Of a stretch of DNA of 34,209 nucleotides, positions 1 through 34,209 are shown one piece after another (the stretch's first letter is position 1; each line of letters begins with the position of its first letter). Source of the DNA: Planctomycetaceae bacterium (lineage in GTDB: Bacteria > Planctomycetota > Planctomycetia > Pirellulales > Pirellulaceae); assembly GCA_027487485.1 (NCBI GenBank), contig JAIYDN010000028.1, positions 1 through 34,209 of the forward strand, read 5' to 3'. The notes beneath the pieces were generated by a model. That model saw nothing but the letters and a program-made list of their open reading frames with translations. It did not search any database and had not been told where the DNA came from. The position numbers were made by a program, and so were the translations under genes.

Positions 1-3000
1 GCAAGATTCTTCGCTCCCCTCTCCCTCTGGGAGAGGGGCTGGGGGTGAGGGTTCAGCCACTCTTGACCAGCAGCCAACACTTACCAGTCTCAGCGTTGAC
101 GCAGGTACGGAACAGTTGGGACAACTGTCTTCCAGTGTAGAACAGTTGTCCTCAACTGTTCCCGCGCTGCAATCGCCAGTCTCAGCCGATTCAACGTTGT
201 CAGACAACAATCAAGCAAGTCTCAGCGTTGACGCAGGTTCGGAACAGTTGGGACAACTGTTCGACACTGTTCCCTCGCTGCAATCGCCAGTCTCAGCCGA
301 TTCAACGTTGTCTGACAACAATCAAGCAAGTCTCAGCGTTGACGCAGGTTCGGAACAGTTGGGACAACTGTTCGACACTGTTCCCGCGCTGCAATCGCCA
401 GTCTCAGCCGATTCAACGTTGTCAGACAACAATCAAGCAAGTCTCAGCGTCGACGCAGGTTCGGAACAGTTGGGACAACTGTTCGACAATGGGCCCGCGC
501 TGCAATCGCGTCCCTCAGCCGACTCGACGCTGTCAAGCAACAACGAAGCAAGTCTCAGCGTCGATGCGGGCTCGGAACAGTTGGGACAACTGTTCGACAA
601 TGAAATCGCTTTCGTTCAATCCGGCCTCTACGACTCCGAAGCCCTCATCGCTGATCTTGAAGCCAATGCCTTGGCTACCGGTCGCACTCTTTCCATCATC
701 GTTCTCAACGGTACCGAAAGCGGCTTCGATCAGATCAGCAGCGTTCTAGCGCAGTACACCGATCTGGATGCGATCCATTTTATATCGCACGGCACGGATG
801 GCATGATTCAGTTGGGTGGATCATGGCTGACCGCTGGCAATATTGAACAATACGAAGCACATCTACAAACGTGGGGAATGTCACTGAGTGAATCAGGGGA
901 CATACTCATTTACGGTTGCGATGTCGCAGCCGGTCCGGAAGGACAAGCGTTCATCGATCGCGTTGCGGAGTTGATGCGAGCTGACGTTGCGGCGTCGACG
1001 GATAAGACAGGGGATGTATCACGCGGTGGTGATTGGGATTTGGAGTATGTCGCAAGCACTACCCCCTCACCCCCGGCCCCTCTCCCCCAAGGGGGCGAGG
1101 GGAGCGAAGCCGGAATGGCCACGCGCTCTGGCGAGGGGAGCGAAAGCTTATTTGATTCTTCGCTCCCCTCTCCCACTGGAAGAGGGGCCGGGGGTGAGGG
1201 GTTGATTTCAGCAAGCACCCCCTTTGGCCTCCAATTCCAATCCTCCTACGGAGGCCTCCTAGCCACCTACACCGTCACCAACACTAACGATTCAGGTGCT
1301 GGTTCATTCCGCCAAGCCATCCTCGATGCCAACGCCAATGCGGGGGCAGACATCATCGTCTTCAACATCGCTGGCGGTGGCACTCAGACCATCAACATCG
1401 TGACGGTGCTACCAACGATCACCGATCAAGTGACCATCGATGGTACGACGCAGACTGGCTATGTCGCAGGCAGCTTCATTCCGATCATCCTCGATGGAAA
1501 CAACTTCAATGCGAGCGGCTTAACGTTGGGCGCCGGTTCGAGCAACAGCACGATTCGTGGATTGGTCGTCCGAGACTTTGGAACGTGGGGTATCGAAGTT
1601 CTTTCCACCTCGATGGCCAATACGATCAGCAACAATTTTGTTGGGCGAATGGACAGTAGTGGTAGCTCCGTTACGGGCGAAGAGAACACGGGAGGCATCC
1701 GGGTTTCGTCCGGTTACAACACCATCGGCGGATCAACTAGCAATAGAAATGTGGTTTCTGGAAATACCGGCTCGGGTAACAGCTACTCTGCTATTCACAT
1801 TGATGGCGTAAACAATGTGATTGCGGGCAATATTGTTGGACTCAATGCCGCCGGTACGTCCGCGTTGGCCAATGGAACGTACGGTATTTGGTTGTCGAGC
1901 AATGCGGCTGGGTCGATTGTTGGCGGGACTAGTGAGACCGCACGCAATATCATCTCAGGAAACACGCACGACGGCATCGTTATTGATGGTGGCAATAGCC
2001 AAACGATGCGTAGCATGCGCATTCAAGGGAACTATATCGGCACAGATATCAATGGTTCAACCGCTATTGGAAACGGCCGTTATGGTATCTACCTGTGGCA
2101 ACAAGCATCTGGAGTTACCATCGGTGGTTCGGTCTCCGGTGCGGGGAATGTGATCTCGGGTAACGCAAGTCGAGGCATTTATGGTGAAAACGGCATCTAC
2201 AACACGATCCAAGGGAACATCATCGGCTTGGACCGAACCGGGACGCTTGATCGAGGGAACACCGGGCATGGAATAGAGTTAATCAATACCAGCTACTCGA
2301 CGATCGGCGGTACCGATCCTTTAGCCCGCAACATCATCTCCGGCAATAACTCGGACGGTATTGCGATTGGCAACGCTACATCGACGAACAACGTCATCCA
2401 AGGGAACTACATCGGCACCGACATCAATGGTTCGGCAGCAACCGGCCTCGGCAATTCGCGCTACGGAGTCTATTTCTACAACAGCGCGGCTAGCAACACG
2501 CTTGGCGGTACAGCGACCGGCGCAGGAAACGTAATCTCGGGCAATGCAGAAATTGGAGTGTACGTCGAAGGGAACAACAACGTCATTCAAGGGAACACGA
2601 TCGGTCGCAACGTTGGCAATAGCTCAAGCCTCGCCAATCAGTATGGCATCTACGTTTTCAACGCGAGCGGAACCATCATCGGTGGAACGGCAGCGGGTGC
2701 AGGGAACATCATTGCGGGGAACACCAATTCCGGTATTCCACTCGCAAACACCGCAGCCAACACTTCGATTCTTGGCAATAGCATCTTCAGCAACGGATGG
2801 TTGGGAATCGACGTGAACAATGACAATATCGTTCAAGCCAACGATGTTCTCGATGCGGACACGGGCTCGAATGGTCTTCAGAATTTCCCAGTCATCTCTA
2901 GTGCCGTATCGGGCCCTACAGGCACAACCATCGCAGGCAGTTTCAATTCGCTGGCGAGTACGAACTTCCGCATCGAGTTCTTCTCGATCCCGAGCGGCAC

Positions 3001-6000
3001 GCAAGACTCGACCAACGGCGAAGGCCCGACCTATCTCGGCTTCATCAACGTCACGACCGATGGTTCAGGTAACGCGTCGTTTACCGAGTTCTTGCAGAAT
3101 CTATTCATTGCAGCTGGCGATCGAGTCACCGCGACTGCCACGGCTCGCCCGACGGACTTTACTTTTGGAAACACCTCAGAGTTTGCTGCCAACGTTTCGG
3201 TGACTTCAGGTGGAACCCAAGGAACAAGCGGCGCCAACTTCTTGACGGGTACCTCTAGCACAGAAACAATTGGCGGACTTGCGGGCAACGACTTCATCTC
3301 GAGCGGCGCGAATATCGCAAGTGACGGTCAGTTCTTGAATGGATCTGCTTCTGGAGGCGCTGTGACCACTTATAGCAGCGGCCAGACATTCGGTGGTTGG
3401 ACGGTATCGCAAGCGAGCATCGACTTATTAACATCTGGCTTCATATCGGTACCAAGCGGTGGCCGTTCGATTGACATGGACGGTGGTTCTCCTGGTGCCA
3501 TTTCGCAGACGTTGACCACGGTAGCCGGTAATACTTACACAGTACGTTTCATGATGTCGGCTAACGCGGGAGGCAACTCAACGCGGTCGCTTGAACTAAG
3601 TGCCGGCGGAGTTCTATCCAACTACAGCATCAACACCTCCGCGGGCCATTCGATTTCCAATCCGGATTGGGTGGAACAGTCGTATACATTCACGGCGACT
3701 GGCACATCGACAGTGCTTCAATTTCGAAGCCTATCTGCTTCCGGAGCAGGAGGAGCCATCCTTGCCGACGTCGCCGTCATCAATCAGTCGGCTTCCAACG
3801 GCACCGACAACCTCATCGGCAACAGCGGCAACGATACGCTCATCGGCAGCGGTGCGGTGGACCGGCTCGAAGGGGACGATGCGAATCTGGTTTACAACGG
3901 GTCGTTTGAGCTTGGTCCGTTCGGTCAGAATACTACTCCGACTGGTTGGACCAAGATCACAAACGTTGGTGACGGAGCCTGGAATGACAGTAGCCGCGCT
4001 TCTGAGGGAACCGGTGAGTTTGGGTTTGGAGGTTGGGTCTCGGGCGCGGGTAGTACCATTGCCCAGACGATTAATACGGTCGCTGGAACGACTTACACGT
4101 TCAGCTTCGATTTGACGCGTACTGCCTCAGACCAGAGACCCGGACAATTACAGGCCTTGGTTCTTGATGGCGCAAACTCGCTACTCAATCAGACTGTAGC
4201 GATAAACTACTTAGGCAAACAAACCTACACATTCAGTTTTACAGCGACCAGTAGTTCCACAACGTTACAGTTCGCAGATCAATCAATTAACCCTGCCGCC
4301 GGTGATATCGATCTAGACAACGTGCGCGTTTATGCATCGACAGGTGGAAACGACACGCTGATCGGCGGAGCAGGCAACGATTCGCTCTATGGCGGTGGGG
4401 GCAATGATACGCTCGATGGCGGTGCGGGATCAGACTACATCGATGGTGGTCCGGGAACTGACACGGTCACTTATGCCAACTCGACTGCCGGTGTGACAGT
4501 CAATCTCGGAATCAACTTTCAAACGAGCACCGGTGATGCGTCCAGCGATTGGATCGCAAATGTTGAGAACGTTATCGGTTCCGCGTTCGCAGATACACTG
4601 ACCGGCAATAGCAGCAACAACACGCTCGATGGTGGAGCGGGTGATGATACGTTTGTAGCCAGCGGTGGATCGGACACGATCATCGGCGGTGCAGGTACCG
4701 ACGTCCTGATTCTGAGTGGAAATCGGTCCAACTATTCGATCACCAACAACTCGGGCACGCTCACGATCATCGATACGCGAAATAGCAGCCCAGATGGCAC
4801 CGAGACAGTCACCGGAGTCGAAACGTTCCGCTTTGCAGATGGGGACATGTCAAGCAGCAATGTTGCGACCATCACGTCGCTTGCGGCACCGATTGTTGAA
4901 ACCTTTGATAACGGTAGCTTGACTGGTTGGACGGGCGGGACCCTGGTAACCACCAACTCGGATTTCGGGCCGTTTTTGACTTCGGCTACGACGTTTAATA
5001 ATCCGAGTACCGCGGCCAGTTCGCTCGGGGTTCAAAACGTTCAAGATGTATCCAAGACGTTTAGCCTCTCAGGAAATCAAACGTCGGTGACCATCAGCTT
5101 CACGATGAATCAAATTGATTCTTGGGATGCCGAAAACTTCCTGGTTTGGCTGAATGACTCGCTGGTTTCATCCAATAGTTTTATACACAACGCAGCGAAC
5201 AACTACACAAACACCACGCCCGATATGGCTGCGGGCACAAGCTACGGATTTTCCGGTTGGCACGAAATCCAAAACACTTATGTTTTGACTTTCAACACTA
5301 CTGCCACCACGTTAAAGCTCGGATTCGGCTCACAATTAGAATCCCAATGGTCTGACGAAGCCTGGGGTGTCGACAATCTGGTCATTCGTGAGAACCTCTC
5401 GGGTGCTTCAACGACTTATTCCGAAGGCAACACAACGGCGGATAACTTCAATGGCTTGGTAGGTTATTGGCGAGCCGACGGGAATCTGAATGATTCGGTT
5501 GGCACGAATAATGGCACGCTTACCAATGGTGCTACGTATGGAACGGGCAGAAGCGGTCAAGCGTTTTCCTTCGATGGCGTCGATGACTATGTTCAGCTTG
5601 GATCGTCGACAAGCTTCCAAATGACCAATGCGTTTACGGTCGATGCTTGGGTCAATCCAACAGGAGCGGGAGCATCATGGGATATCATTCTGAACAAAGA
5701 AGGCGAATACGAAATAGCTAGAAACGCAACCAATGGCCGCCTCTACTGGGCAATCGCGAACAGCAGCAACGCCTGGGCTTGGAACGATACTGGCTACACC
5801 ATTGCGACCGGTTCATGGACACATGTTGCGATGACGTTCGACAATGGAACCGTGCTACTCTATGCAAATGGATCGTTGGTTAGTTCGTCATCCATTTCTT
5901 CTGCAACGATCGGCGATAACCTTGCGGGGCAAAATGATTTGCGCATCGGTGGCCGGCAAGCGGTTGCTTCCGGTGAGAATTTCAAAGGGCTCATCGACGA

Positions 6001-30000: not shown

Positions 30001-33000
30001 AAACCAAGGGATGGACTCGCCGTTTATCAACTACGGTAGTCTCGTCGGCAACAACTTGACGTTGAATGGTTACGTTGGATCGAATTCGTCTCAGAGCACC
30101 TTTGCAAACTGCCGCGTCGAGTTTTTCATTAGCGACGCTAACAACTCGGCGGGCAGCGGCCGAGTTTACTTGGGCTTCTTGACCACGGACGCCAACGGCA
30201 ATTTCAACGGCACGCTCGACGTCGCCGGTCTCGGCATGCAGACCACGGACTCGATCACTGCCACCGCGACCGATGCGTCAGGCTATACATCGGAATTCGG
30301 TGTAAACGTCGTTGCCAACTTGACACCGACAGCCGTGGCCGATGCGGCTACTGCTGTGGAAGCAGGTGGAGTTAGCAATGGAACCGTGGGGACCAACCCA
30401 ACTGGCAATGTGGTCACGAATGATACCGATCCGAACTCGGGCGATACCAAAACTGTTACGGGCGTCGTCTCAGGCACATCGGCAAGTGCATCGGGATCGG
30501 TTGGAAGCAGTGTGTCAGGAACGTATGGTTCGATCAACATCGCTGCGGATGGCTCGTACACGTACACAGTCGACAATAATAATGCGGCTGTGCAAGAGTT
30601 ACGAACCAGTGCGCAAACGCTGACCGATGTGTTCACGTACACGATGCGCGACAGTGGCAATCTGACGAGCACAACGCAAATCACGGTCACCATCCAAGGT
30701 GCTAACGATACACCAACGATCACCAGCAACGGCGGTGGGGCGAATGCTTCGTTGACCGTCAATGAGAATCAAACTGCGGTGACGACGGTGGTTGGTAACG
30801 ATGTCGACGAAGGGACAACGCTTGCCTACAGCATTGTCGGTGGCGCTGATTCGAACCACTTCGCAGTCAACTCGTCCACGGGAGCGTTAACGTTTATCGG
30901 CAACCGAGATGCGGAGATACCCGGCGACGCGAATCGCGATGGAGTGTATATCGTCCAAGTACGAACCAGCGACGGGGCGCTTGCCTCGACGCAAACGCTG
31001 TCGGTGACCGTGGCGAGCGTCAATGAAGCGCCGATCGACATTTGGGCGGGGACCAAAACAGCGGTCACAGTCACGAATCCCGGCTTCGAAGCGAACATCG
31101 TGAGTGACGGTACTTACACGGTTAATTCGATTTCGGGATGGTCAGGCTCGGCCAACGGCTCAAGTTTCGGTGCGCATAATATTTACCGTGAGAATCTTGC
31201 CAGCGATGCTGCCTCAGGCGTCAATATTGCTTATCTTAACCCAAATGCCAGCATCAATCAGACGCTCTCGGAAACGCTTACTTCCGGGACAAAGTATGAA
31301 CTAACGTTCGATGTTGGAAATCGTCAGGATGATGTTGGATTTGCCACGGGCACCATCGAACTCTTTGCCGGTGCAACTCTGATCGGGACACGGGCCATCA
31401 ACGCGCCACCCGAAGGTGGCTGGACGACGCAGCGGCTCGAATTCGACAGTGCGAGCTTGGCATCGAGCTCGGCCCTGTTCGGACAGGCGCTAAGAATACA
31501 ATTCACAAGCACTAACAGTACAGGGCTTCAGATCGATCTCGACAATGTACAGCTCTGGAAGACGACGAATCCAACCATTGCCGAAAATAGTTCCAACGGA
31601 GCAATCGTCACCACGATCACCGGCGTTGATCCTGACGTTGGCCAATCGGCTTCGTTAACCTACTCGCTCACCAACGATGCGGGTGGACGCTTCGCGATCA
31701 ACAGTTCGACAGGCCAAGTTACCGTTGCCAACGGTACCTTGCTCGACTTTGAAGCGAACCCATCGCATGCTATCACGGTTCAAATCGCAGACACGAGTGG
31801 ATTGACTTATTCGGAGACAGTCACGATCTCGGTCAACGCTGTCAATGAAGGGCCGACGGCAGTAGCTGACGCTGCGACAGCCGTTGAAGCAGGCGGAGTT
31901 GCAAACGCGACCGCCGGAACAAATCCGAACGGCAACGTGTTGAGCAACGATACCGACGTCGATGCTGGAGATACCAAGACCGTTAGCGGTGTGTCCGCAG
32001 GAATCTCGGCTAGCGTTTCAGGCTCAGTAGGTAACGCCGTCACCGGAACATACGGTTCCATCAACATCGCTGCAGATGGCAGTTATACGTATACGGTCGA
32101 TAACAACAACTCAACAGTTCAAGCTCTTCGCACGACCGCGAACACGTTGAGTGATGTCTTCACCTACACGATGCGCGATGCAGCGGGCTTGACCAGCACC
32201 ACGCAAATCACCGTAACAATCCAAGGTGCCAATGACGCTCCGACCGATGTTATCGGGACGTTGACAGTCGCAGAGAATAGTGCGAACTCCAGTGTTGTTG
32301 GAACAGTTTCCACTACCGATATCGACAGCGGTGATGCGTTTACTTACGCCCTGATCGACGACGCGGATGGCCGATTCGCGATCAATAGTTCCAATGGCCA
32401 AGTGACTGTCGCGAACAGTTCGTTATTAAACTTCGAAGCCGCTACATCGCATTCGATTACCGTTCGCGTAACGGACGCAAACAATCTGACCTACGACAAG
32501 CAACTGACGGTTCAAGTCACCGACATGGCGGAGAACTTGTCTCTTACCAGTGGCGATGATGTCTTCACCGACGTCAGCGTCACCGAGCTTTCGATTGATG
32601 GCGGTGCAGGGAATGACAACATCACCGGCAGCAACACCAATGACTTTATCATCGGCGGTGCCGGCAACGACATGATCGATGGCGGAGCTGGAACAGACAC
32701 GGGAGTCTTCTCCGGGAATCTCTCTGCTTACGACGTCTACTTCAATGATTCGTGGGACGCCAGACTTACCGTGCTCGATCAACGGTCCCTTTCGCCCGAT
32801 GGCGTCGACACTCTCACGAGCATCGAGACTTTGCAGCTTGCGGACCGTAACGTCAGTGTGATTCAAGAGCAACCCTTCCAAGGGACCAGTGGCAACGATG
32901 CAATCATTGCGTTTAGTCACGACTGGAACGCGGGATACTTCGACATCGACGGTGGGCAAGGGAATGACACGCTGATCGGATCGGGGCTTGTAAATCTCTA

Positions 33001-34209
33001 CGGGGGTGATGGTAATGATATCATCAATATCACGGGGGTTGGAGATGACGGAAGCGCTTTCGGAGGTGCTGGCAACGACATCATGACCCAGCGAGGTGGT
33101 TCCCTTTTTCAATTCCAGGGTGGGGACGGCGATGACCAGATGTATGTCTTGGGCGCAGGATCGACCGGTGGAATCGATGGCGGATCGGGCAATGACTTGA
33201 TCGATGCTTCCCAAGAGTGGAATGACAACTTCTTCATCGGCGGAGCCGGGAATGACACTCTCATCGGCGGCATTGGCACGAACGACGTTGCATTCTATAG
33301 CGGTAACTGGAATGACTACACCATCACGTATAACGCGAGTACTTCGACTTACACCCTTGTGGACCGTCGCAACGGTTCACCGGACGGTACCGATACCGTC
33401 ACGGGCGTGGAAGTCTTTCAGTTCGCCGATCAAACGATCATTGTTTCGAATACAAGCGATCTGTTGAACGATGCACCGACGGCGTTGTCCGACACGGCAT
33501 CCGCAGTAGAAGCGGGGGGCATTGCCAATGCAAACGCAGGAACGAACCCGACAGGCAATGTTCTCGTGAATGATTCGGATATTGATATCGGTGATACCAT
33601 GTCGGTAACCGCGATAGCCGCAGGCACATCACCCACAGCAACACAAAACGCTGGGCAAAACGTCGCGGGTTCCTATGGTTCCATCGTTATCGCAGCGGAC
33701 GGATCTTATACGTATTCAGTCGATAACAACAACGCAGCGGTGCAGGCACTTCGAACAACCTCCAATACGCTCACCGACGTATTCACCTACACGATTGCCG
33801 ATGCAAGCGCAGCTACTTCATCTGCTCAAATCAGCGTGACCATTCAAGGTGCCAACGACGCTCCCGTAGCAGTGACCGACACCGCAATCGCGGTCGAAGC
33901 GGGTGGCACCACGAACGGCACCGCAGGTACGAACCCAAGCGGCAACGTTCTGACCAACGACACCGACGTCGATGCTGGTGATACCAAGACAGTTTCGGGC
34001 GTCGCAACCGGAGTTCAGTCCTCCTCGACGGGCTCCGTAGCCTCTTTGGTTAACGGCCTTTATGGCTCCATCAATATAGCTGCCGACGGAACTTACACCT
34101 ACACCGTCAACAATAGCAACGCTGCCGTGCAAGCGTTAGCGTCCAATGCGGATACACTCCAAGATATCTTTACCTACACGGTGACGGATTCCGGTGGATT
34201 GACTAGTAC
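1..34209 (+). CDS. Giant multidomain surface/adhesin-like protein, internal fragment (open at both ends)
   Basis: One reading frame (codons starting at base 2) is open across the whole window, 11,402 codons without a stop. Conserved modules in this same frame run from DUF4347 at the left to VCBS repeats at the right edge, so there is no frameshift. No start is visible: the first in-frame ATG is at 803, inside DUF4347, so the true start lies upstream. The order is tandem repeats, DUF4347, beta-helix, RTX blocks with jelly-roll and LamG modules, BspA-like repeats, then a long cadherin/VCBS chain carrying C-type lectin-like, LamG, L-type lectin and jelly-roll modules. Composition is rich in Thr, Ser, Asn, Gly, Ala and Val and very poor in Cys (four found by eye). 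Families of this kind are exported and calcium-stabilised, and usually act in adhesion or carbohydrate binding. Function and surface location are inferred. The secretion signal and anchor lie outside the window. Confidence 0.95.
2..50 (+). repeat. G+C-rich palindromic (REP-like) repeat, translated in frame
   Basis: A perfect hairpin has arms CCCCTCTCCC (16-25) and GGGAGAGGGG (29-38) around a 3-base loop, followed by a GGGGGTGAGGG tail. The same unit recurs at 1153-1200 in the same orientation and the same codon phase. Both copies encode the peptide DSSLPSPxGRGAGGEG. The rest of this copy may lie left of the window. Such repeats are usually intergenic; this one is coding. Confidence 0.8.
86..601 (+). 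repeat. Tandem repeat, four full units and one partial (37-44 residues each)
   Basis: Units start at 86 (132 bases), 218, 329 and 440 (111 bases each) and 551 (partial, runs into DUF4347). The consensus begins SLSVDAGSEQLGQLFDTVPA and ends LQSPVSADSTLSDNNQA. Units 2 and 3 are almost identical in DNA; the first unit carries 7 extra residues. Each of the last four copies contains a palindrome with 9-base arms GAACAGTTG / CAACTGTTC around GGA (242-262, 353-373, 464-484, 575-595). All unit lengths are multiples of three, so copy-number change keeps the frame. It is probably a spacer ahead of DUF4347; its function is unknown. Confidence 0.92.
602..1057 (+). other. DUF4347 domain
   Basis: Residues 201-352 of the fragment. 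It begins EIAFVQSGLYDSEALIADLE and shows the family's characteristic motifs: ISHGTDG around 782-802, LIYGCDVAAG at 905-934, ADVAAS at about 980-1000 and GGDWDLE at 1025-1045. About 152 residues is the normal full length. In other giant bacterial proteins this domain sits near the N-terminus, before cadherin/VCBS/RTX arrays, as here. Its biochemical role is not established. The His of SHG (788-790) and the Cys of YGCD (917-919) are 43 residues apart, a layout that recalls clan CD (caspase/CHAT) His-Cys dyads; that link is inference. Confidence 0.92.
1062..1201 (+). repeat. Inverted pair of G+C-rich REP-like palindromes inside the gene
   Basis: The outer arms 1063-1082 and 1182-1201 are perfect 20-base reverse complements. 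Each half also folds on itself: 1077-1102 (CCCCTC-T-CCCCC-AA-GGGGG-C-GAGGGG) and 1165-1187 (one mismatch). The right half matches the copy at 2-50. The block lies between the end of DUF4347 and the beta-helix and is read through as a low-complexity peptide containing PSPPAPLPQGGEGSEA and DSSLPSPTGRGAGGEG. It resembles a palindromic element inserted at a domain boundary, tolerated because it has no stop in this phase. Confidence 0.85.
1262..3205 (+). other. Right-handed parallel beta-helix domain 1
   Basis: Residues 421-1068. It opens with TNTNDSGAGSFRQAILDANA, the N-terminal cap style of CSLREA-type beta-helix proteins but without the Cys. Then come repeated coils with the motifs (R/G)N(I/V)ISGN (for example 1943-1963), IQGN(Y/I)IG and TIGGT, spaced as in bacterial right-handed beta-helices. 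From about 2873 a beta-rich C-terminal cap follows, with NFPVISSA, FRIEFF, GEGPTYLGF, TATA and NTSEFAANV, typical of the end of these domains. Probable role: an elongated carbohydrate-binding or structural domain. No catalytic residues can be assigned by eye. Confidence 0.85.
3206..3310 (+). other. RTX-type calcium-binding segment, first half
   Basis: Short degenerate nonapeptide repeats (NFLTGTSSTETIGGLAGNDF) follow the beta-helix. The segment is cut by a jelly-roll module and resumes at 3788, so the two pieces look like one RTX block with an insertion. Confidence 0.65.
3311..3787 (+). other. DUF642-like jelly-roll module
   Basis: Begins NIASDGQFLNGSASGG and contains FGGWTVSQASIDLL, SIDMDGGSPGAISQTL, GNTYTVRFMMSANAG and EQSYTFTATGTSTVLQF. 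This order (wrapped strand with GW, then ID.DG, then Q.L.T..G..Y...F) matches DUF642-type galactose-binding-like beta-sandwiches. It is inserted within RTX repeats. Carbohydrate binding is inferred from the fold family. Confidence 0.65.
3788..3883 (+). other. RTX-type calcium-binding segment, second half
   Basis: Repeats NGTDNLIGNSGNDTLIGSGA followed by VDRLEGDDA. This is the continuation of the block interrupted at 3311, and the next jelly-roll module follows directly. Confidence 0.75.
3884..4339 (+). other. Jelly-roll module (NGSFE...GW type)
   Basis: Starts NLVYNGSFELG, then TGWTKI, STIAQTINTVAGTTYTFSFD, YTFSFTATSSSTTLQF and ends DIDLDNVRVYAS. This pattern, an N-terminal NGSFE strand and a C-terminal LDNVRV strand, defines a galactose-binding-like / CBM-like beta-sandwich that recurs along the protein. 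Ligand unknown. Confidence 0.65.
4340..4864 (+). other. RTX (hemolysin-type calcium-binding) block
   Basis: Canonical GGxGxDxx repeats, for example GGNDTLIGGAGNDSLYGGGG and GGAGDDTF, coordinate Ca2+ in a parallel beta-roll. They are followed by the usual companion elements: DTVTYANSTAGVTVNL, NVENVIGSAFADTLTGN, and a module with SGNRSNYSIT, SPDGTETVTGVETFRFAD. Confidence 0.92.
4889..5395 (+). other. Galactose-binding-like beta-sandwich module (variant)
   Basis: Starts PIVETFDNGSLTGWTGG and ends DEAWGVDNLVIREN. The GW near the start and the VDNL strand at the end match the jelly-roll pattern, but the interior (VSKTFSLSGNQTSVTISF, DAENFLVWLND) differs from the NGSFE modules, so it is a divergent relative or a separate family. 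It lies between an RTX block and the LamG module. Confidence 0.5.
5450..6061 (+). other. LamG / concanavalin A-like lectin domain 1
   Basis: Residues 1817-2020, about 204 residues, normal for bacterial LamG_3-type domains. Motifs in order: LVGYWRADGNLNDSVGTNNG, GQAFSFDGVDDYVQLG, FTVDAWVNP, SWTHVAMTFDNGTVLLYANG and the end signature FKGLIDDVGVYRRALSASEI. Members bind glycans or serve as beta-sandwich spacers, often with bound Ca2+. The ligand here is unknown. Confidence 0.93.
6122..6316 (+). other. RTX calcium-binding block
   Basis: Six or more consecutive nonapeptides, including VGNDTISTG, GDGNDTLEGGAGADVLTGG and GTGADTIDAGAGDDTVWAEG. The array is cut after DTVWAEGA by a jelly-roll module that starts NLIVNGSFE. 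Confidence 0.9.
6317..6757 (+). other. Jelly-roll module (NGSFE...GW type)
   Basis: NLIVNGSFESALSTGWTSSG, then VLMQNVSTVVGANYNLGFDF, VEYNFTALGNNSTIIF and DAALDNVRLF. It is embedded between RTX repeats on both sides and is another copy of the recurring beta-sandwich. Confidence 0.65.
6758..7288 (+). other. RTX calcium-binding block
   Basis: GGSGNDLIYGGGGDDWINGG and further units, then two copies of the companion segment (DTVSYFGSSAAVTVNL with NIENIVGSIHNDTITG; DTASYSLATSAVTVSL with GIENLIGSAFNDTLTGG), ending AGNDIIYGD. The next jelly-roll module interrupts directly after the repeat. Confidence 0.92.
7289..7720 (+). other. Jelly-roll module (NGSF...W type)
   Basis: NDLIVNGSFGAGGAGWSYPN, FEAWAS, NIELDVGGSLDSVYQDVTL, YTLAYAYVGRIGM, YQFTATATTTRIEF and LLDSIQLTL. 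The FE.W, ELD and VYQDV elements make it closest to the module at 21830. Its last residues run straight into the RTX repeat SSDMLFGGAGND. Confidence 0.6.
7721..8239 (+). other. RTX calcium-binding block
   Basis: FGGAGNDTIYGGAGNDTIEG and further repeats, companion segment ILSYAGSSAAVTIHL plus FRDLIGSAFADTLTGN, then GGGGNDTIDGGSGTDTVVF and SGNRSDYTVT, SPDGSDKVYATENFTF. It is the last of the left RTX cluster. Confidence 0.92.
8240..8575 (+). other. Cadherin-like / Ig-like beta-sandwich module
   Basis: VANNDSFSTIQSITTVINPG, ANDTSGISSTRTITG, NGTVLTLRTDGRLNVNAAYS, GPIQFDYLVSDGSTADQGTV. The pattern (N.D.....G......L...G......N...G...F.Y.V.DG......V.V.V) resembles VCBS-related tandem domains of large adhesins. 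It acts as a linker between the RTX cluster and the BspA-like block. Confidence 0.6.
8582..10714 (+). other. BspA-like (DUF285) surface-repeat domain
   Basis: Residues 2861-3571. The start GFVTTWDTTRNG with YIVYWGDGTSTV is the usual cap of this family. From about 8969 to 10549 some 21 repeats of 25-27 residues follow, consensus FNxxLSxWNTSxVTNMxxMF. The C-terminal cap YNATLIGWAAQAVQNN ... AAQTARNTL ... NWSISGDTL is also typical. Three repeats are 27 residues long with an NMxQMF core (two NMQQMF, one NMHQMF). A 381-base block of five repeats is duplicated (compare VNNFYLMF at about 9749 and 10130). The family (Bacteroides BspA, mycoplasma DUF285) is linked to adhesion; the role here is inferred. 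Confidence 0.92.
10727..11101 (+). other. VCBS repeat module 1 (short variant)
   Basis: TAAEAGGVSNATAGSNATGN, then FGSITIAADGSYTYTVNNSN, LTDVFTYT and ITVTIQGANDAP. It is 125 residues, four fewer than the other copies, because the acidic DVDAGD segment after NVLTNDT is replaced by GTSRV (about 10817-10843). A calcium site may be lost. It heads the first VCBS-LamG-cadherin super-module. Confidence 0.88.
11108..11764 (+). other. LamG / concanavalin A-like lectin domain 2
   Basis: AVAAYDFENGSGNSPSVVSG, SNAFSFGAWVRFDQTDVWGR, IFDFGT, GSWMHVAVTVNSSNVLTAYV, NG and FRGAMDDIAIFDRALTAGEV. The end signature is that of LamG_3-type modules. A close relative at 20459 has the same neighbours. Confidence 0.92.
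11774..12073 (+). other. Cadherin-like module 1
   Basis: 100 residues: SIAENSANGTNVFDARSSDV, DSGDGVTYSI, FAINATTGQVTVANSSQLNF, TVTVTDVNEAP. It shares the NVNEAP-type end (compare cadherin DxNDNxP) that recurs in this chain; such modules form Ca2+-stiffened rods. It pairs with the copy at 21143. Confidence 0.9.
12074..12709 (+). other. L-type (legume-like) lectin domain
   Basis: Core at about 12122-12700: NASLVSGTTYQLTPAANAQA, GAVWGAVNLAQDVTITSRMY, GADGMAFAFQN, FGISFDTFFNNQNNEINSDF, DGLWHDVVISWNASTKTLSY and GWFGFGAGTGGATNQQQVEI. The GADG(M)AFxxQ and I.FDT...N..E motifs, with their Asp and Asn residues, are the metal- and sugar-binding elements of L-type lectins. It is the only copy in the window and is flanked by cadherin-like modules. 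Confidence 0.88.
12710..12985 (+). other. Cadherin-like module 2
   Basis: 92 residues: SVAENSAANTVVGLAAAVDP, VTYALTDNAGGRFAINSSTG, ITVANGSRLDAEF, VANVNENP. Class A cadherin (GGRFAIN) linking the L-type lectin to the next jelly-roll module. Confidence 0.9.
13013..13492 (+). other. Jelly-roll module (NASFEQN...GW type)
   Basis: ISINNASFEQNPLSDGSF, GTPGWTMTGTGGDFNPST, GSNVAYLNNGTSMSQTL, YQLLVDIGSQLEF, FTVRLYAGSTVVGTY and VKVNLDNVRL. This subtype, with a G.NVA.LN.G segment and an internal LYAGS strand, recurs at 24875 and 31034. A carbohydrate-binding-like beta-sandwich is inferred. Confidence 0.65.
13493..13777 (+). other. Cadherin-like module 3
   Basis: 95 residues: SIAENSVNGAVVTTVTGLDR, LSYSLTNDAGGRFAINTSTG, ITVSNGSLLNFEAS, VTNVNEAP. 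Class A; opens the first CTLD super-module. Confidence 0.92.
13778..14245 (+). other. C-type lectin-like domain 1 (EPN motif)
   Basis: 156 residues: DSYYTRVATALTWEAAMDNA, GTLAIIDSATEQNYLFSL, NWIGASDKNADGVWRWYNGD, YANWTSAGEPNGGTGENYAH, WNDW and SWVEWTG. It has the CTLD landmarks WIG, EPN (14138-14146) and WND (14192-14200). EPN is the mannose-type selectivity motif in classical C-type lectins and WND supplies calcium ligands. No cysteine is present, so the usual disulfides are absent, as in several bacterial CTLDs. Confidence 0.9.
14270..14545 (+). other. Cadherin-like module 4
   Basis: 92 residues: VMENATAGTVVGSLAASDAD, YSIVGGSSLFEVVGSELRVK, SGATFNFES, VVNVNEAP. Class B cadherin, a subtype found only directly after CTLDs (also 16580, 19001, 23123). 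It is nearly identical to the copy at 16580. Confidence 0.92.
14546..15022 (+). other. Jelly-roll module (NGSFE...GW type)
   Basis: NLISNGSFETDTTGWTLSGS, VGQTYTVTFDMGAF, FQVQGASTLINENIVDAG, YRYTFVADSTTTTIRF and VDMMIDNVQAY. It matches the modules at 16853 and 23405, which sit in the same position of the repeated super-module. Confidence 0.68.
15023..15310 (+). other. Cadherin-like module 5
   Basis: 96 residues: SIAENSANGAVVGQVASLEP, LSDNAGGRFAINATTGQITV, SLLNLESAASH, LTNVNEAP. Class A; closes the first CTLD super-module and is close to the copy at 17321. Confidence 0.92.
15311..15808 (+). other. Jelly-roll module (NGSFE...GW type)
   Basis: NLVTNGSFETGTVQGVPPGW, GAVLSQSITTVIGTTYTLIF, LNVQALNGATALLNQTI and NDLDLDNVQVYANT. 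It stands between the first and second CTLD super-modules. Confidence 0.68.
15809..16090 (+). other. Cadherin-like module 6
   Basis: 94 residues: TIAENSSNGTTVATVTGSDL, LSYSLTDTAGGRFAIGSSTG, SLLNFETNTSH, VTNVNEAP. Class A; opens the second CTLD super-module. Confidence 0.92.
16091..16555 (+). other. C-type lectin-like domain 2 (EPN motif)
   Basis: 155 residues: DSYYTLVTTQLGWEAAMDNA, NIGASDLLQEGVWRWYNGDT, QSWNAGEPNNGGGTEDYAGL, WNDG and SIIEWTG. EPN is at 16445-16453 and WND at 16502-16510. EPNN...ED is the full mannose-type primary-site layout of classical CTLDs. It is Cys-free like the other copies. Confidence 0.9.
16580..16852 (+). other. Cadherin-like module 7
   Basis: 91 residues: VMENAAAGTVVGTLAAADAD, YSIVGGSSLFEVVGSELRVK, VVNVNEA. 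Class B, post-CTLD subtype; its DNA is almost the same as 14270-14545, which points to recent duplication or gene conversion. Confidence 0.92.
16853..17320 (+). other. Jelly-roll module (NGSFE...GW type)
   Basis: NLISNGSFETNTTGWTLTGN, GDSANTGVASSTLTTVIGQA, YTVTFDMGAYSAS, LVNESLVDAGSN and VDMALDNIQMYAV. Equivalent to the module at 14546 in the preceding super-module. Confidence 0.68.
17321..17611 (+). other. Cadherin-like module 8
   Basis: 97 residues: SVAENSANSTVVGQVTSTDP, LLDTAGGRFAINATTGQITV, SLLNLESAASH, LTNVNEAP. Class A; closes the second CTLD super-module. Confidence 0.92.
17612..18229 (+). other. LamG-like / concanavalin A-like domain 3
   Basis: NNFTLEIKATPRETITLPAQ, GMAVMADQGDGAWG, IGLAVGTNGVVVYQHSSSNF, PDSDIAVVFVNKTPTLFVNG and the end signature YFNGTLSDYRIWNSALDSTT. 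The start is less standard than in the other LamG copies, but the end is clearly LamG_3-type. It separates the second and third CTLD super-modules. Confidence 0.85.
18230..18511 (+). other. Cadherin-like module 9
   Basis: 94 residues: VVENASNGTVVGRARGYDPD, LTSDAGGRFAINNTTGEITV, SLLDFETATNH, LRNVNEGP. Class A; opens the third CTLD super-module. Confidence 0.92.
18512..18976 (+). other. C-type lectin-like domain 3 (QPD motif)
   Basis: 155 residues: DSYYSYVSTGMTWEAAMDNA, SWIGASDKLQEGVWRWYNGD, YANWTSGQPDNASGIENYAH, WNDN and SVVEWTG. Here the EPN position holds QPD (18866-18874), the galactose-type motif of classical C-type lectins; WND is at 18923-18931. This points to a different sugar preference from CTLD 1 and 2. 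Confidence 0.9.
19001..19279 (+). other. Cadherin-like module 10
   Basis: 93 residues: VMENAAANTVVGTLAATDPD, YTLVGGATSKFQISGTQLQV, KSGATFDFEATP, VVNVNEAP. Class B, post-CTLD subtype, more diverged than the two copies before it. Confidence 0.92.
19280..19780 (+). other. Jelly-roll module (NGSFE...GW type)
   Basis: NIVSNGSFETGSTGAVAPTG, GVLFQDLTTVAGQTYQLSFD, LRVQVLDGSTSLRTETIYDT and GDLDNVVVRAI. It has the variant C-terminal strand LDNVVVR. It occupies the jelly-roll slot of the third CTLD super-module. Confidence 0.68.
19781..20071 (+). other. Cadherin-like module 11
   Basis: 97 residues: SIAENSANSTVVGTINTQDV, LTNNAGGAYAINSTTGVVTV, SLLNFESTPTS, LTNVNEGP. Class A with GGAYAIN instead of GGRFAIN; closes the third CTLD super-module. 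Confidence 0.92.
20072..20458 (+). other. VCBS repeat module 2
   Basis: 129 residues: DTATATEAGGVSNGTAGTNP, TGNVLTNDTDVDAGDTKTVS, FGTINIAANGAYTYTVDNSN, TYTMRDTAGLTSTTQITVTI and GANDAP. Standard VCBS module (the family named from Vibrio, Colwellia, Bradyrhizobium and Shewanella) of large adhesins. The DVDAGD loop is likely calcium-binding. Confidence 0.93.
20459..21136 (+). other. LamG / concanavalin A-like lectin domain 4
   Basis: AVAAYDFENGSGNATSSVTD, QITVSSWVRFDASGFWQRVF, DFGSGSG, NSWVHVAATLTSSGAMELYV, NG and LRGAIDDFHVFDRVLTAGEI. Close relative of the domain at 11108, in the same VCBS-LamG-cadherin context. Confidence 0.92.
21143..21442 (+). other. Cadherin-like module 12
   Basis: 100 residues: AINENSANGTVVFKARARDV, DSGDSLTYSIVSGNTNSTFS, GATGQVTVANSSSLNFE, VANVNETP. 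Follows LamG 4 and matches module 1 (11774), including the SGNTNSTF segment. Confidence 0.92.
21443..21829 (+). other. VCBS repeat module 3
   Basis: 129 residues: DSATAVEAGGTANGTAGTNP, NVLTNDTDIDTADTRTVAGV, FGSINVAANGAYTYTVDNSN, TYTMRDTAGLTST and GANDAP. Exactly the same length as the other full copies. Confidence 0.93.
21830..22309 (+). other. Jelly-roll module (NGSFE...GW type, variant)
   Basis: NLITNGSFETNNGGSGVLAG, VAGWSPVGGEGFEIWKNNGP, SHLELDVFAGSATGIAQDVS, YVVSFDFACRGGG and GSHIDNVRLI. The FE.WK, LELDV and QDV elements resemble the module at 7289. It contains one of the few cysteines of the protein (codon 22112). Confidence 0.65.
22319..22612 (+). other. Cadherin-like module 13
   Basis: 98 residues: SVAENAANGTVVALAGARDA, YSLTNNASGRFAIDSTTGII, TVADGSQLNFEAATSH, VSNVNEGP. 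Class A; opens the fourth CTLD super-module. Confidence 0.92.
22613..23080 (+). other. C-type lectin-like domain 4 (degenerate sugar site)
   Basis: 156 residues: GKYYAAVSTFGNWEAAMDAA, MFWVGGSDMLVEGQWTWYQG, DTPTALFHQG, LHTLAGEDYGQYGWAGG, ALND and YIVQWDS. The fold landmarks remain, but EPN/QPD is missing and WND has become LND (23024-23032). The classical calcium/sugar site therefore looks lost or rebuilt. It is the most diverged of the four copies. Confidence 0.85.
23123..23404 (+). other. Cadherin-like module 14
   Basis: 94 residues: VATVQENAAANTLVGNLSRT, DVDAGDTATYTIVGGTGQAK, FSIVSGTELRVATGATFNFE, VGNVNEAP. Class B, post-CTLD subtype. Confidence 0.92.
23405..23869 (+). other. Jelly-roll module (NSSFE...GW type)
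   Basis: NLVSNSSFETDTTGWTLTGT, VATTTIATAVGQAYTLTFDA, NVQILGSSTLSNETIFDVGS and VDMVLDNVQVQAV. Equivalent to the modules at 14546 and 16853 in the other super-module copies. Confidence 0.68.
23870..24169 (+). other. Cadherin-like module 15
   Basis: 100 residues: TIAENSANNTVVGTAIGFDP, DAYSNDALRYSLANDAGGRF, LLTGQITVANGSLLDFD, LTNVNEGP. Class A; closes the fourth CTLD super-module. Confidence 0.92.
24170..24556 (+). other. VCBS repeat module 4
   Basis: 129 residues: DAATAVEAGGTANGTAGTNP, NVLTNDTDVDAGDTRTVSGV, FGSINIAANGAYTYTVDNTN and GANDTP. Opens the first VCBS-cadherin-jelly roll-cadherin-VCBS super-module. Confidence 0.93.
24557..24874 (+). other. Cadherin-like module 16
   Basis: 106 residues: TITSNGGGATASLTVNENQT, VVGNDVDAGTTLSYSIVGGA, HFAVNSSTGALTFIGNRDAE, VASVNEAP. 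Class C cadherin, which starts TITSNGG and always follows a VCBS module (also 27365 and 30716). Confidence 0.92.
24875..25399 (+). other. Jelly-roll module (NPGFE...GW type)
   Basis: TAISISNPGFESTVQTDGTS, MPGWTSS, GSNVAAISAGSAVAMYQVLG, YELIADVGNRQDVAGF, GEFRLYAGSTLLTS, PPEGGWATQRLEFDS and INIDNVQLWKTS. Paired with the copy at 31034; same subtype as 13013. Confidence 0.68.
25400..25687 (+). other. Cadherin-like module 17
   Basis: 96 residues: TVAENSTNGDVVTIITGVDP, LTNDAGGRFAINSSTGQVTV, SLLDFEANPSH, VNAVNETP. Class A; nearly identical in DNA to 31568-31855. Confidence 0.92.
25688..26074 (+). other. VCBS repeat module 5
   Basis: 129 residues: DTATAVEAGGVTNATAGTNP, NVLTNDTDPDAADTKTISGV, YGSINIAANGAYTYTVDNSN and GANDTP. 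Closes the first VCBS-flanked super-module. Confidence 0.93.
26075..26683 (+). other. Beta-sandwich (concanavalin A-like?) module, single copy
   Basis: TISDNFNDGVLDSSKWTANT, VVESSGVITLTQRGFLNT, GVRITGSAQF, GDFIRVITRGSGSPTNAFGN, TFSTGVWYNFEVVDTGTNLL and NLDDVAIATG. The opening DNFNDG.LDSSKW and the later strands resemble bacterial concanavalin A-like or DUF1349-like sandwiches that often bind glycans; I cannot assign a family. It holds one of the rare cysteines (codon 26645) and is unlike any other module in the window. Confidence 0.5.
26684..26977 (+). other. Cadherin-like module 18
   Basis: 98 residues: VNLAENTSNGTQVAKITPFD, LVNNAGGRFALNTSTGVITV, SLLDFETNTSH, LTNVNEAP. Class A. Confidence 0.92.
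26978..27364 (+). other. VCBS repeat module 6
   Basis: 129 residues: DTATAVEAGGTANGTAGTNP, NVLTNDTDVDAGDTRTVSGV, YGSITIGSNGAYTYSVDNSN, TYTMRDTAGLTSTMQVTVTI and GANDAP. Confidence 0.93.
27365..27676 (+). other. Cadherin-like module 19
   Basis: 104 residues: TITSNGGAATAAISINENVT, VVGNDVDAGSTMTYSIVGGA, TKFTINSSTGALSFNAAPDF, IIDVSN. Class C; its end is IDVSN rather than NVNEAP, and it runs into the second beta-helix. Confidence 0.9.
27677..30325 (+). other. Right-handed parallel beta-helix domain 2 (CSLREA-like cap)
   Basis: About 883 residues. The cap ILVVDTTADNNDASITNGIG ... GKVSLREAIIAANNTTGTDT is the CSLREA motif with Lys-Val in place of the Cys. About a dozen rungs follow with NTISGN, TIGGT, (R/G)N(V/I)ISGN, IQGNYVGT and GLNAAGNA motifs, two to three times as many as recognisable cap elements suggest for a short helix. 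It ends with a beta-rich cap (MDSPFINYGSLVGNNLTLNG, CRVEFFISDANN, RVYLGFLTTDANGNF, TATATDASGYTSEFG) homologous to the end of the helix at 1262. Cysteine codon at 30110. Probable structural or glycan-binding role. Confidence 0.88.
30326..30715 (+). other. VCBS repeat module 7
   Basis: 129 residues from 30329: DAATAVEAGGVSNGTVGTNP, NVVTNDTDPNSGDTKTVTGV, YGSINIAADGSYTYTVDNNN and GANDTP. The acidic loop reads DPNSGD. Opens the second VCBS-flanked super-module. Confidence 0.93.
30716..31033 (+). other. Cadherin-like module 20
   Basis: 106 residues: TITSNGGGANASLTVNENQT, VVGNDVDEGTTLAYSIVGGA, HFAVNSSTGALTFIGNRDAE, VASVNEAP. Class C; a close copy of 24557-24874 (roughly 90 percent DNA identity by eye). 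Confidence 0.92.
31034..31567 (+). other. Jelly-roll module (NPGFE...GW type)
   Basis: TAVTVTNPGFEANIVSDGTY, SGWSGSANG, VNIAYLNPNASINQTLSETL, YELTFDVGNRQDDVGF, GTIELFAGATLIGT, PPEGGWTTQRLEFDS and IDLDNVQLWKTT. Copy of 24875-25399, more diverged in its first half. Confidence 0.68.
31568..31855 (+). other. Cadherin-like module 21
   Basis: 96 residues: TIAENSSNGAIVTTITGVDP, LTNDAGGRFAINSSTGQVTV, TLLDFEANPSH, VNAVNEGP. Class A; long stretches are identical in DNA to 25400-25687. Confidence 0.92.
31856..32242 (+). other. VCBS repeat module 8
   Basis: 129 residues: DAATAVEAGGVANATAGTNP, NVLSNDTDVDAGDTKTVSGV, YGSINIAADGSYTYTVDNNN, TYTMRDAAGLTST and GANDAP. Confidence 0.93.
32243..32536 (+). other. 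Cadherin-like module 22
   Basis: 98 residues: TVAENSANSSVVGTVSTTDI, LIDDADGRFAINSSNGQVTV, SLLNFEAATSH, VQVTDMAEN. Class A with a degenerate end (TDMAEN); it is the last cadherin-like module before the right-hand RTX block. Confidence 0.9.
32537..33469 (+). other. RTX calcium-binding block (right-hand)
   Basis: GGAGNDNITGSNTNDFIIGG, AGNDMIDGGAGTDT, GGQGNDTLIGSGLVNLYGGD, GNDIINITG, GGAGNDIMTQ, GGDGDDQMYV, GGSGNDLIDAS and GGAGNDTLIGG. It contains two companion modules (SGNLSAYDVY with SPDGVDTLTSIETLQLAD, and SGNWNDYTIT with SPDGTDTVTGVEVFQFAD). Unlike the left cluster it has no inserted jelly-roll modules. Confidence 0.93.
33479..33865 (+). other. VCBS repeat module 9
   Basis: 129 residues: DTASAVEAGGIANANAGTNP, NVLVNDSDIDIGDTMSVTAI, YGSIVIAADGSYTYSVDNNN, TYTIADASAATSSAQISVTI and GANDAP. 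Diverged from the central copies but of the same length. Confidence 0.92.
33866..34207 (+). other. VCBS repeat module 10 (cut by window edge)
   Basis: DTAIAVEAGGTTNGTAGTNP, NVLTNDTDVDAGDTKTVSGV, YGSINIAADGTYTYTVNNSN and TYTVTDSGGLTS, where the window ends. The frame is still open, so the protein continues to the right. Confidence 0.92.

What the first reader, a model, noticed from the sequence alone, without database searches (positions are those of the whole stretch)
1..34209. One gene longer than the 34.2 kb window: an open frame of at least 11,402 codons
A single + strand frame is stop-free from edge to edge, and recognised modules lie in that frame throughout. This puts the product among the largest predicted bacterial proteins. 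Maintaining such an ORF without a frameshift argues for active selection. Start, export signal and anchor are outside the window.
Basis: seen in the sequence. Interest (0 to 1): 0.75.

Follow-up and report, generated by a model that had tools for sequence, protein, structure and literature searches.

The report
Giant bacterial surface protein, ends missing
The whole 34.2-kb stretch is the middle of one enormous gene in a planctomycete, encoding a modular surface protein of more than 11,400 amino acids; such giants are known in this phylum, but this one hints at how they are capped at both ends and why assemblies break inside them.

Summary
Confirmed. The window is a complete contig (C58) of a 7.49-Mb planctomycete genome. 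One + frame has no stop in 11,402 codons; the other five have 226-664. Purifying selection is clear. No internal exact repeat reaches 119 nt, the length at which this assembly seems to break, so collapse or chimerism is unlikely.

Size is not exceptional: at least 12 frames over 5,000 codons occur in this genome, three of them longer (up to 14,639), and 39,678 aa is published elsewhere.

New here: (1) The right end is an assembly junction. C58 and C93 share an exact 119-nt end; C64 and C19 share an exact 119-nt start and carry the only two copies found here of a C-terminal hydrophobic module. Two-in/two-out implies this gene ends in one of them. (2) That module matched nothing in NCBIfam or, convincingly, in Pfam, yet caps 30 of 32 giants with N-terminal DUF4347, against 1 of 88 without. 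(3) DUF4347 is predicted to fold like caspases; its His and Cys align with the putative catalytic pair of Tce1. (4) C64/C19 similarity ends at the stop codon.

Best reading: an anchored, calcium-binding giant adhesin with a built-in caspase-like domain. The start is unfound; anchoring and proteolysis are inferred.

The parts
2..34207 (+). open frame, 11,402 codons, no stop, no start codon of its own in the window; about 1.16 MDa, calculated pI 4.05, 4 Cys
1..60 (+). dispersed palindromic repeat read in frame (SLPSPSGRGAGGEG)
   Evidence: copies on other contigs; hairpin -31.1 kcal/mol, z -2.0
110..165 (+). second palindromic element read in frame, strong hairpin
   Evidence: z -7.1; copies on many contigs
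155..599 (+). four 111-bp tandem copies, linker before DUF4347
605..1063 (+). DUF4347 (PF14252), predicted caspase-like fold
   Evidence: 157 bits against cut-off 24.6; model pLDDT 93.4; fold matches
788..790 (+). His of the conserved SHG motif (residue 263), putative catalytic
   Evidence: at least 90% conserved in 21 sequences; position checked
917..919 (+). Cys of the conserved YGC motif (residue 306), putative catalytic
   Evidence: invariant in 21 of 21 sequences; position checked
1060..1204 (+). two further in-frame copies of the dispersed palindromic repeat; their hairpins are not significant (z -1.3 and -1.6)
1289..3001 (+). first beta-helix-like region (label by homology to giants annotated PF13229; no Pfam hit of its own)
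3308..8050 (+). jelly-roll (DUF642/HpiC1-like) and RTX nonapeptide blocks, with one laminin-G domain at 5591-6040
8903..10651 (+). DUF285 repeat block
   Evidence: 530 bits
10712..27661 (+). long array of cadherin and VCBS/Cadherin_4-type domains with interspersed jelly-roll and laminin-G domains
13925..23032 (+). four C-type-lectin-like domains (13925-14200, 16238-16510, 18659-18931, 22760-23032)
   Evidence: the first Pfam row is just under its cut-off, the second over it
27662..30313 (+). second beta-helix-like region (by eye; left uncovered by the domain map)
30314..34207 (+). terminal VCBS/cadherin domains with RTX repeats at 32600-33283
34091..34209 (+). 119 nt identical to the right end of contig C93: assembly junction, not a gene end

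Best explanation
The window is the body of one giant gene for a calcium-binding, multi-ligand surface adhesin of a planctomycete. SHOWN: one intact frame under purifying selection; N-terminal linker, DUF4347, beta-helix-like region, jelly-roll/RTX blocks, DUF285 block, about 22 cadherin and 10 VCBS-type domains with laminin-G and C-type-lectin-like domains, second beta-helix-like region, more VCBS/cadherin/RTX; the contig stops inside a VCBS domain at a repeat junction. STRONGLY INFERRED: the gene continues through an unassembled stretch shared with the C93 gene and ends in the C-terminal module on C64 or C19. INFERRED: an N-terminal segment with a LEPR-XLL-like motif lies left of the window; the protein leaves the cell through a TolC/HlyD-type route and the hydrophobic C-terminal module holds it at a membrane; Ca2+ stiffens the cadherin/VCBS/RTX shaft; lectin, laminin-G and beta-helix parts bind surfaces or glycans. 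LEAST CERTAIN: DUF4347 is a cysteine protease in cis that processes or releases the adhesin.
Against: The 5' end was not found by two searches. The joining stretch itself is not held, and three DUF4347 contigs of this kind (C58, C47, C93) face only two C-terminal modules, so one C-terminus is unaccounted for. Not every neighbouring contig overlap is 119 nt: C54/C71 is 44 and C49/C63 is 29. The hydrophobic segment of the C64 module is modest (peak Kyte-Doolittle mean 1.7 over 19), no higher than the best stretch inside the window (1.8). Exporter and GGDEF/HD genes were seen beside 2 of 5 relatives' genes and not beside this one. No expression or proteome data.
Confidence: 0.6

Rival explanations
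1. The long frame is an assembly artefact: collapsed or chimeric repeats stitched from several smaller genes.
For: Repeat-rich sequence; contig ends lie in repeats; the C93-type N-terminus is joined to a different DUF4347 type in a sister genome (L076).
Against: No exact repeat of 119 nt or more inside the contig; longest 74 internal, 86 to C47, 46 to C93 outside the end, 18 of 114 contigs compared. Four orthologous segments keep the order over residues 4-3375, and C47 aligns as one stretch over 62-9803, though loosely in the repeat array. Single-contig relatives hold frames of 4,999 and 8,497 aa with both ends.
Confidence: 0.05
2. A giant secreted protein whose DUF4347 domain acts on foreign targets (an effector or toxin-like protein) rather than on itself.
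For: The only solved relative of DUF4347 found is an injected putative protease, Tce1 (PMC13323088, passages).
Against: DUF4347 sits at the N-terminal side of an adhesin-like shaft, with a hydrophobic module at the other end in 30 of 32 cases; no delivery module was recognised in the window.
Confidence: 0.12
3. A structural cell-coat or polysaccharide-handling protein rather than an adhesin.
For: [quoted passage not shown] beta-helix-like and lectin parts could bind or process glycans.
Against: No Pfam hit to a polysaccharide-degrading catalytic domain in the window at E <= 0.01; cadherin/VCBS/RTX composition is typical of adhesins (recalled).
Confidence: 0.2
4. A decaying or unexpressed frame kept open by chance.
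For: No expression data.
Against: dN/dS 0.07-0.23; chance of a stop-free run 1e-99 or less.
Confidence: 0.03

Closest known systems
P0054, 6,988-aa protein (unnamed organism, contig 192 kb)
   Same: N-terminal LEERILFSA, DUF4347, beta-helix-like, jelly-roll/RTX, DUF285, cadherin/VCBS and the C-terminal module; 64-66% identity over window residues 201-1811 and 2035-4331
   Different: Much shorter; no C-type lectin match found with the window's domain
Planctomycete giant genes (>5 kb in PMC5352709, >15 kb in PMC8303584; passages of both; Reva and Tummler 2008 as cited there)
   Same: Phylum, size class, surface-protein character
   Different: About 36 kb is the largest cited in PMC5352709; this frame alone is 34.2 kb and must be longer
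Novipirellula VCBS-domain proteins P0020 and P0041 (7,918 and 7,407 aa)
   Same: LEERILLS/LEDRILLS N-terminus, DUF4347, VCBS/cadherin body, same C-terminal module
   Different: Their Pfam lists show no DUF285
LapA-type RTX adhesins (recalled; PMC12153261 passages)
   Same: Long Ca2+-binding beta-sandwich shaft; TolC/HlyD genes and GGDEF/HD proteins beside some relatives
   Different: [quoted passage not shown] here a hydrophobic module sits at the C-terminus and the predicted protease is in cis
Tce1 (PA0256), Pseudomonas aeruginosa T6SS effector, PDB 9qpe
   Same: DUF4347 fold and His/Cys pair (PMC13323088 and PMC8262886, passages)
   Different: Small injected protein; not part of an adhesin
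Omnitrophota giant ORFs (39,678 aa; PMC10066038, passage)
   Same: Giant predicted surface-associated protein
   Different: Much larger; described there with 42 predicted transmembrane helices

Membership tests
DUF4347 giant surface proteins | PF14252 domain over its cut-off | tested here: met
   157.1 bits against 24.6
DUF4347 giant surface proteins | N-terminal LEPR-XLL-like motif before DUF4347 | tested here: inconclusive
   Start not in the window; motif seen in paralogue C93 and orthologue L076 (LEDRIMYSA); my motif pattern is found in 22 of 32 DUF4347 giants and in 13 of 88 others; NCBIfam gives no LEPR-XLL hit for C93
DUF4347 giant surface proteins | C-terminal hydrophobic W-x2-R/Q...P-x-W...D module | tested here: inconclusive
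   Two copies found in the genome, linked to C58 and C93 by the two-in/two-out 119-nt junction, but the joining stretch is not held
RTX adhesins (LapA type) | RTX nonapeptide repeats | tested here: met
   PF00353, 10 stretches in the first 3,000 residues and 1 in the last 3,002
RTX adhesins (LapA type) | N-terminal retention module cut by a LapG-type protease under a LapD-type receptor | not tested
   Start not in the window; no LapG/LapD search was made
RTX adhesins (LapA type) | C-terminal type I secretion signal | not tested
   C-terminus not in the window; 30 of 32 relatives with DUF4347 end in a hydrophobic module
Clan CD (caspase-like) cysteine peptidases | caspase-like fold | tested here: met
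   [not shown]
Clan CD (caspase-like) cysteine peptidases | His-Gly and Cys dyad | tested here: met
   His63 at least 90%, Cys106 21 of 21; aligned to the His-Gly and Gly-Cys of Tce1, by my count His186/Cys240 as named in PMC13323088
Clan CD (caspase-like) cysteine peptidases | protease activity | not testable with these tools
   needs a bench assay
Planctomycete giant genes | gene over 15 kb in a planctomycete | tested here: met

The most novel reading that the evidence does not exclude
DUF4347 giants are a self-contained adhesin release system, found in planctomycetes and proteobacteria: an N-terminal caspase-like protease and an undescribed C-terminal membrane module bracket an interchangeable shaft of adhesive domains. 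Export is by adjacent TolC/HlyD-type genes and control by adjacent GGDEF/HD proteins. The organism exchanges N-terminal and C-terminal caps between giants (3' similarity ends at the stop codon), so it rebuilds its surface by module shuffling.
Probability: 0.22. Interest if true: 0.75.

Novelty: new member of a known kind. Interest (0 to 1): 0.47.

Why it matters
It gives a giant-gene class a testable anatomy: caps at both ends (caspase-like domain, hydrophobic C-terminal module) around a variable adhesive middle. The C-terminal module got no NCBIfam hit and no credible Pfam hit although it marks 30 of 32 DUF4347 giants examined. It also shows that this assembly breaks inside such genes at shared modules, so giant proteins are undercounted and their ends lost: at least 8 of the 12 frames over 5,000 codons seen in this genome run off a contig edge.

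Full report
WHAT WAS CLAIMED AND CHECKED. The window is exactly contig C58 (34,209 bp) of a genome of 7,487,990 bases in 114 contigs, 99.98% complete, 2.61% contamination. Frame +2 holds no stop in 11,402 codons; the other frames hold 226-664. At those stop densities a stop-free run of this length has a chance of 1e-99 or less. The first in-frame Met is residue 268, inside DUF4347, so the true start is left of the window.

IS THE FRAME REAL AND SELECTED? Orthologous segments from other MAGs give dN/dS 0.14 (L074, 1,424 codons), 0.18 (L075, 1,897), 0.18 (L076, 3,001) and 0.12 (L154, 972); the paralogous contig C47 gives 0.23 over 9,113 codons. Synonymous sites are saturated or close to it in these five (dS 1.4-2.5), so the values are rough, but third positions change most in each. 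The C58/C93 tail (118 codons) gives 0.12, and the 3' coding ends on C64 and C19 (233 codons, dS 0.23, dN 0.017) give 0.07. The longest exact repeat inside the contig is 74 nt; the longest exact matches to C47 and C93 are 86 and 46 nt, apart from the terminal 119 nt (18 of 114 contigs compared, several in part). If the assembly word is 119 nt, nothing found inside the contig could have misled it. Order is supported by orthologues over residues 4-3375 and, more loosely, by C47 over 62-9803; residues beyond 9803 have no such support.

WHAT IT ENCODES. The frame would make about 1.16 MDa with pI 4.05 and 4 Cys; my domain map covers 62% of it. In order: a linker with four 111-bp repeats, DUF4347, a beta-helix-like region (by homology), jelly-roll and RTX blocks, a DUF285 block, a long cadherin/VCBS array with laminin-G and four C-type-lectin-like domains, a second beta-helix-like region (by eye), and more VCBS/cadherin/RTX. 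Copy numbers from an iterative self-search are cadherin 22, jelly-roll 13, laminin-G 4, C-type lectin 4 and RTX 15. The VCBS model also picked up cadherins; 10 of its 30 matches do not overlap a cadherin.

WHERE THE GENE ENDS. C58 and C93 share an exact 119-nt suffix and are about 87% identical over their last 357 nt. Other 119-nt identities at contig ends: C101/C84 at both ends and the C13/C89 overlap. C54/C71 overlap by 44 nt and C49/C63 by 29. I read 119 as the assembly word. Relatives of this gene with both ends known finish in a hydrophobic segment followed by a W..R..L...P.W...D motif. Searching the own genome with an alignment of seven such ends gave two places at E <= 1, on C64 and C19, each a 233-234-codon frame open to the contig edge. 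Those two contigs share an exact 119-nt start. Two contigs in and two out around one unassembled stretch is the pattern of a collapsed shared repeat, so the window's gene should end in C64 or C19. Which one is not decided, and the stretch between is not held. If so, total length exceeds 11,402 + 233 codons by the missing stretch and the N-terminal part. In the C93 frame 614 codons (563 from the first Met) precede the DUF4347-like domain; in the window about 200 do, so some hundreds of codons are probably missing on the left.

AN UNDESCRIBED C-TERMINAL MODULE PAIRED WITH DUF4347. Of the 120 listed giants (best 120 of 182), 32 carry DUF4347 by my profile; 30 of these have the C-terminal module in their last 200 residues, against 1 of 88 without DUF4347; leaving out the 7 seeds, 23 of 25 (Fisher 1e-20). 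Across 60 genomes, 18 have DUF4347, 14 the module and 11 both (Fisher 2e-5; related genomes, so not independent). In six frames the two lie in one open frame, by coordinates, strand and frame length: G005 4,999 aa, G036 8,497 and 3,437 aa, G032 2,515 and 2,285 aa, G045 2,214 aa. G005, G032 and G036 are single-contig genomes. The C64/C19 ends match nothing in NCBIfam and only one chance-level Pfam row at E <= 1. The hydrophobic peak is modest, so membrane anchoring is inferred.

NEIGHBOURHOODS. I fetched flanks of five of the six relatives' genes. G032 2,285 aa has a divergent cluster upstream of an outer-membrane efflux gene and three HlyD-type genes, and a PAS-GGDEF-HD protein downstream; G036 8,497 aa has a divergent outer-membrane efflux gene and an M50/HlyD gene upstream and a PAS-GGDEF-HD protein downstream; G036 3,437 aa is followed by a hybrid kinase, with no exporter among the neighbours scanned. 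Four scanned neighbours of G005 and of G032 2,515 aa show none of these; other neighbours there were not scanned. The own genome has six genes related at 24-28% identity to the 712-aa HlyD-type protein of G032; one on C71 follows the 3' part of a LEPR-type RTX gene whose 5' part is on C54. None is known to lie beside the window's gene.

MODULE EXCHANGE. C64 and C19 are 90-100% identical in each of the eleven 60-column bins up to position 660; the bin holding the stop has 43 of 60, and beyond it the similarity is at background. The bodies of C58 and C93 align at only 26-32% identity in protein overall, although single modules reach about 80% in DNA. The C93-type N-terminus is joined in the sister genome G002 (L076) to a DUF4347 of the C58 type. 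Both point to exchange of caps between giants by recombination; an assembly error in either genome could mimic the second.

SIZE IN CONTEXT. Frames over 5,000 codons seen, which list only frames with a Cadherin_4 or RTX hit: C13 14,639; C41 11,829; C67 11,482; C58 11,402; C50 10,679, 5,339 and 5,172; C47 9,613; C49 7,928; C93 7,518; C3 5,840; C8 5,218. That is 12 frames, about 320 kb or 4.3% of the genome, a lower bound. At least 8 of them run off a contig edge (C13, C41, C67, C58, C50 10,679, C47, C93, and C49 by arithmetic); C3 and C8 were not checked. C13 continues into C89 for 449 more codons, about 39 of them in the overlap. Published giants: about 36 kb in planctomycetes (PMC5352709, passage), 39,678 aa in an omnitrophote (PMC10066038, passage). 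PMC11573180 (abstract and passages) reports Planctomycetota as enriched in proteins over 5,000 aa. So the window is a strong example, not a record.

WHAT IS IN PRINT. Searches for 'DUF4347' (4 papers), 'LEPR-XLL' (2 papers), giant genes with Planctomycetes (10 papers) and giant/adhesin/Planctomycetes/LapA/cadherin (14 papers with 4 of the 5 terms, 8 listed) showed in their listings no paper on paired DUF4347 and C-terminal caps. These cover only the held open-access library, and only selected passages were read.

VERDICT. Observation confirmed; new member of a known kind (planctomycete giant surface genes). The value lies in the caps: a caspase-like domain at one end and an undescribed module at the other.

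Noticed in passing
1-60, 110-165, 1060-1204: Dispersed palindromic repeats of this genome are read through in frame as part of the giant protein (SLPSPSGRGAGGEG and similar), with copies on many other contigs; reminiscent of the in-frame palindromic elements of Rickettsia (recalled).
   Followed up: partly
L161 and L162 (C64 and C19), 3' coding ends: Two giant-gene 3' ends are 90-100% identical in each 60-column bin up to position 660 and unrelated beyond the stop codon, suggesting gene conversion of the C-terminal module.
   Followed up: yes
G000 contigs C13, C41, C67, C50, C47, C49, C93, C3, C8: At least 12 open frames over 5,000 codons in one 7.5-Mb genome, the window's included; C13 (14,639 codons) overlaps C89 by 119 nt and continues there.
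   Followed up: partly
L032 (C63), L056 (C101), L058 (C84), L059 (C52), and the ends of C41, C50, C67: A second family of giants shares a different, very similar 3' part (seen by eye, e.g. FNRQVFYNNSGFE or NNKPFDN) at which contigs break or converge.
   Followed up: no
L076 8285-10001 and L011 1199-2752: The N-terminal segment of the C93 gene is joined in the sister genome G002 to a different DUF4347 type: N-terminal swapping, or a misjoin in one assembly.
   Followed up: partly
L186 1800-5880, also L185, L187, L188, L189, L190: Six loci with a HlyD-type gene related to the exporter of a relative, in 5 of 6 next to a second weaker match; the C71 pair follows a LEPR-type RTX giant.
   Followed up: partly
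L010/L030 (C47): Contig C47 is also open edge to edge (9,613 codons) and has no assignable C-terminus: three DUF4347 contigs of this kind but only two C-terminal modules.
   Followed up: no
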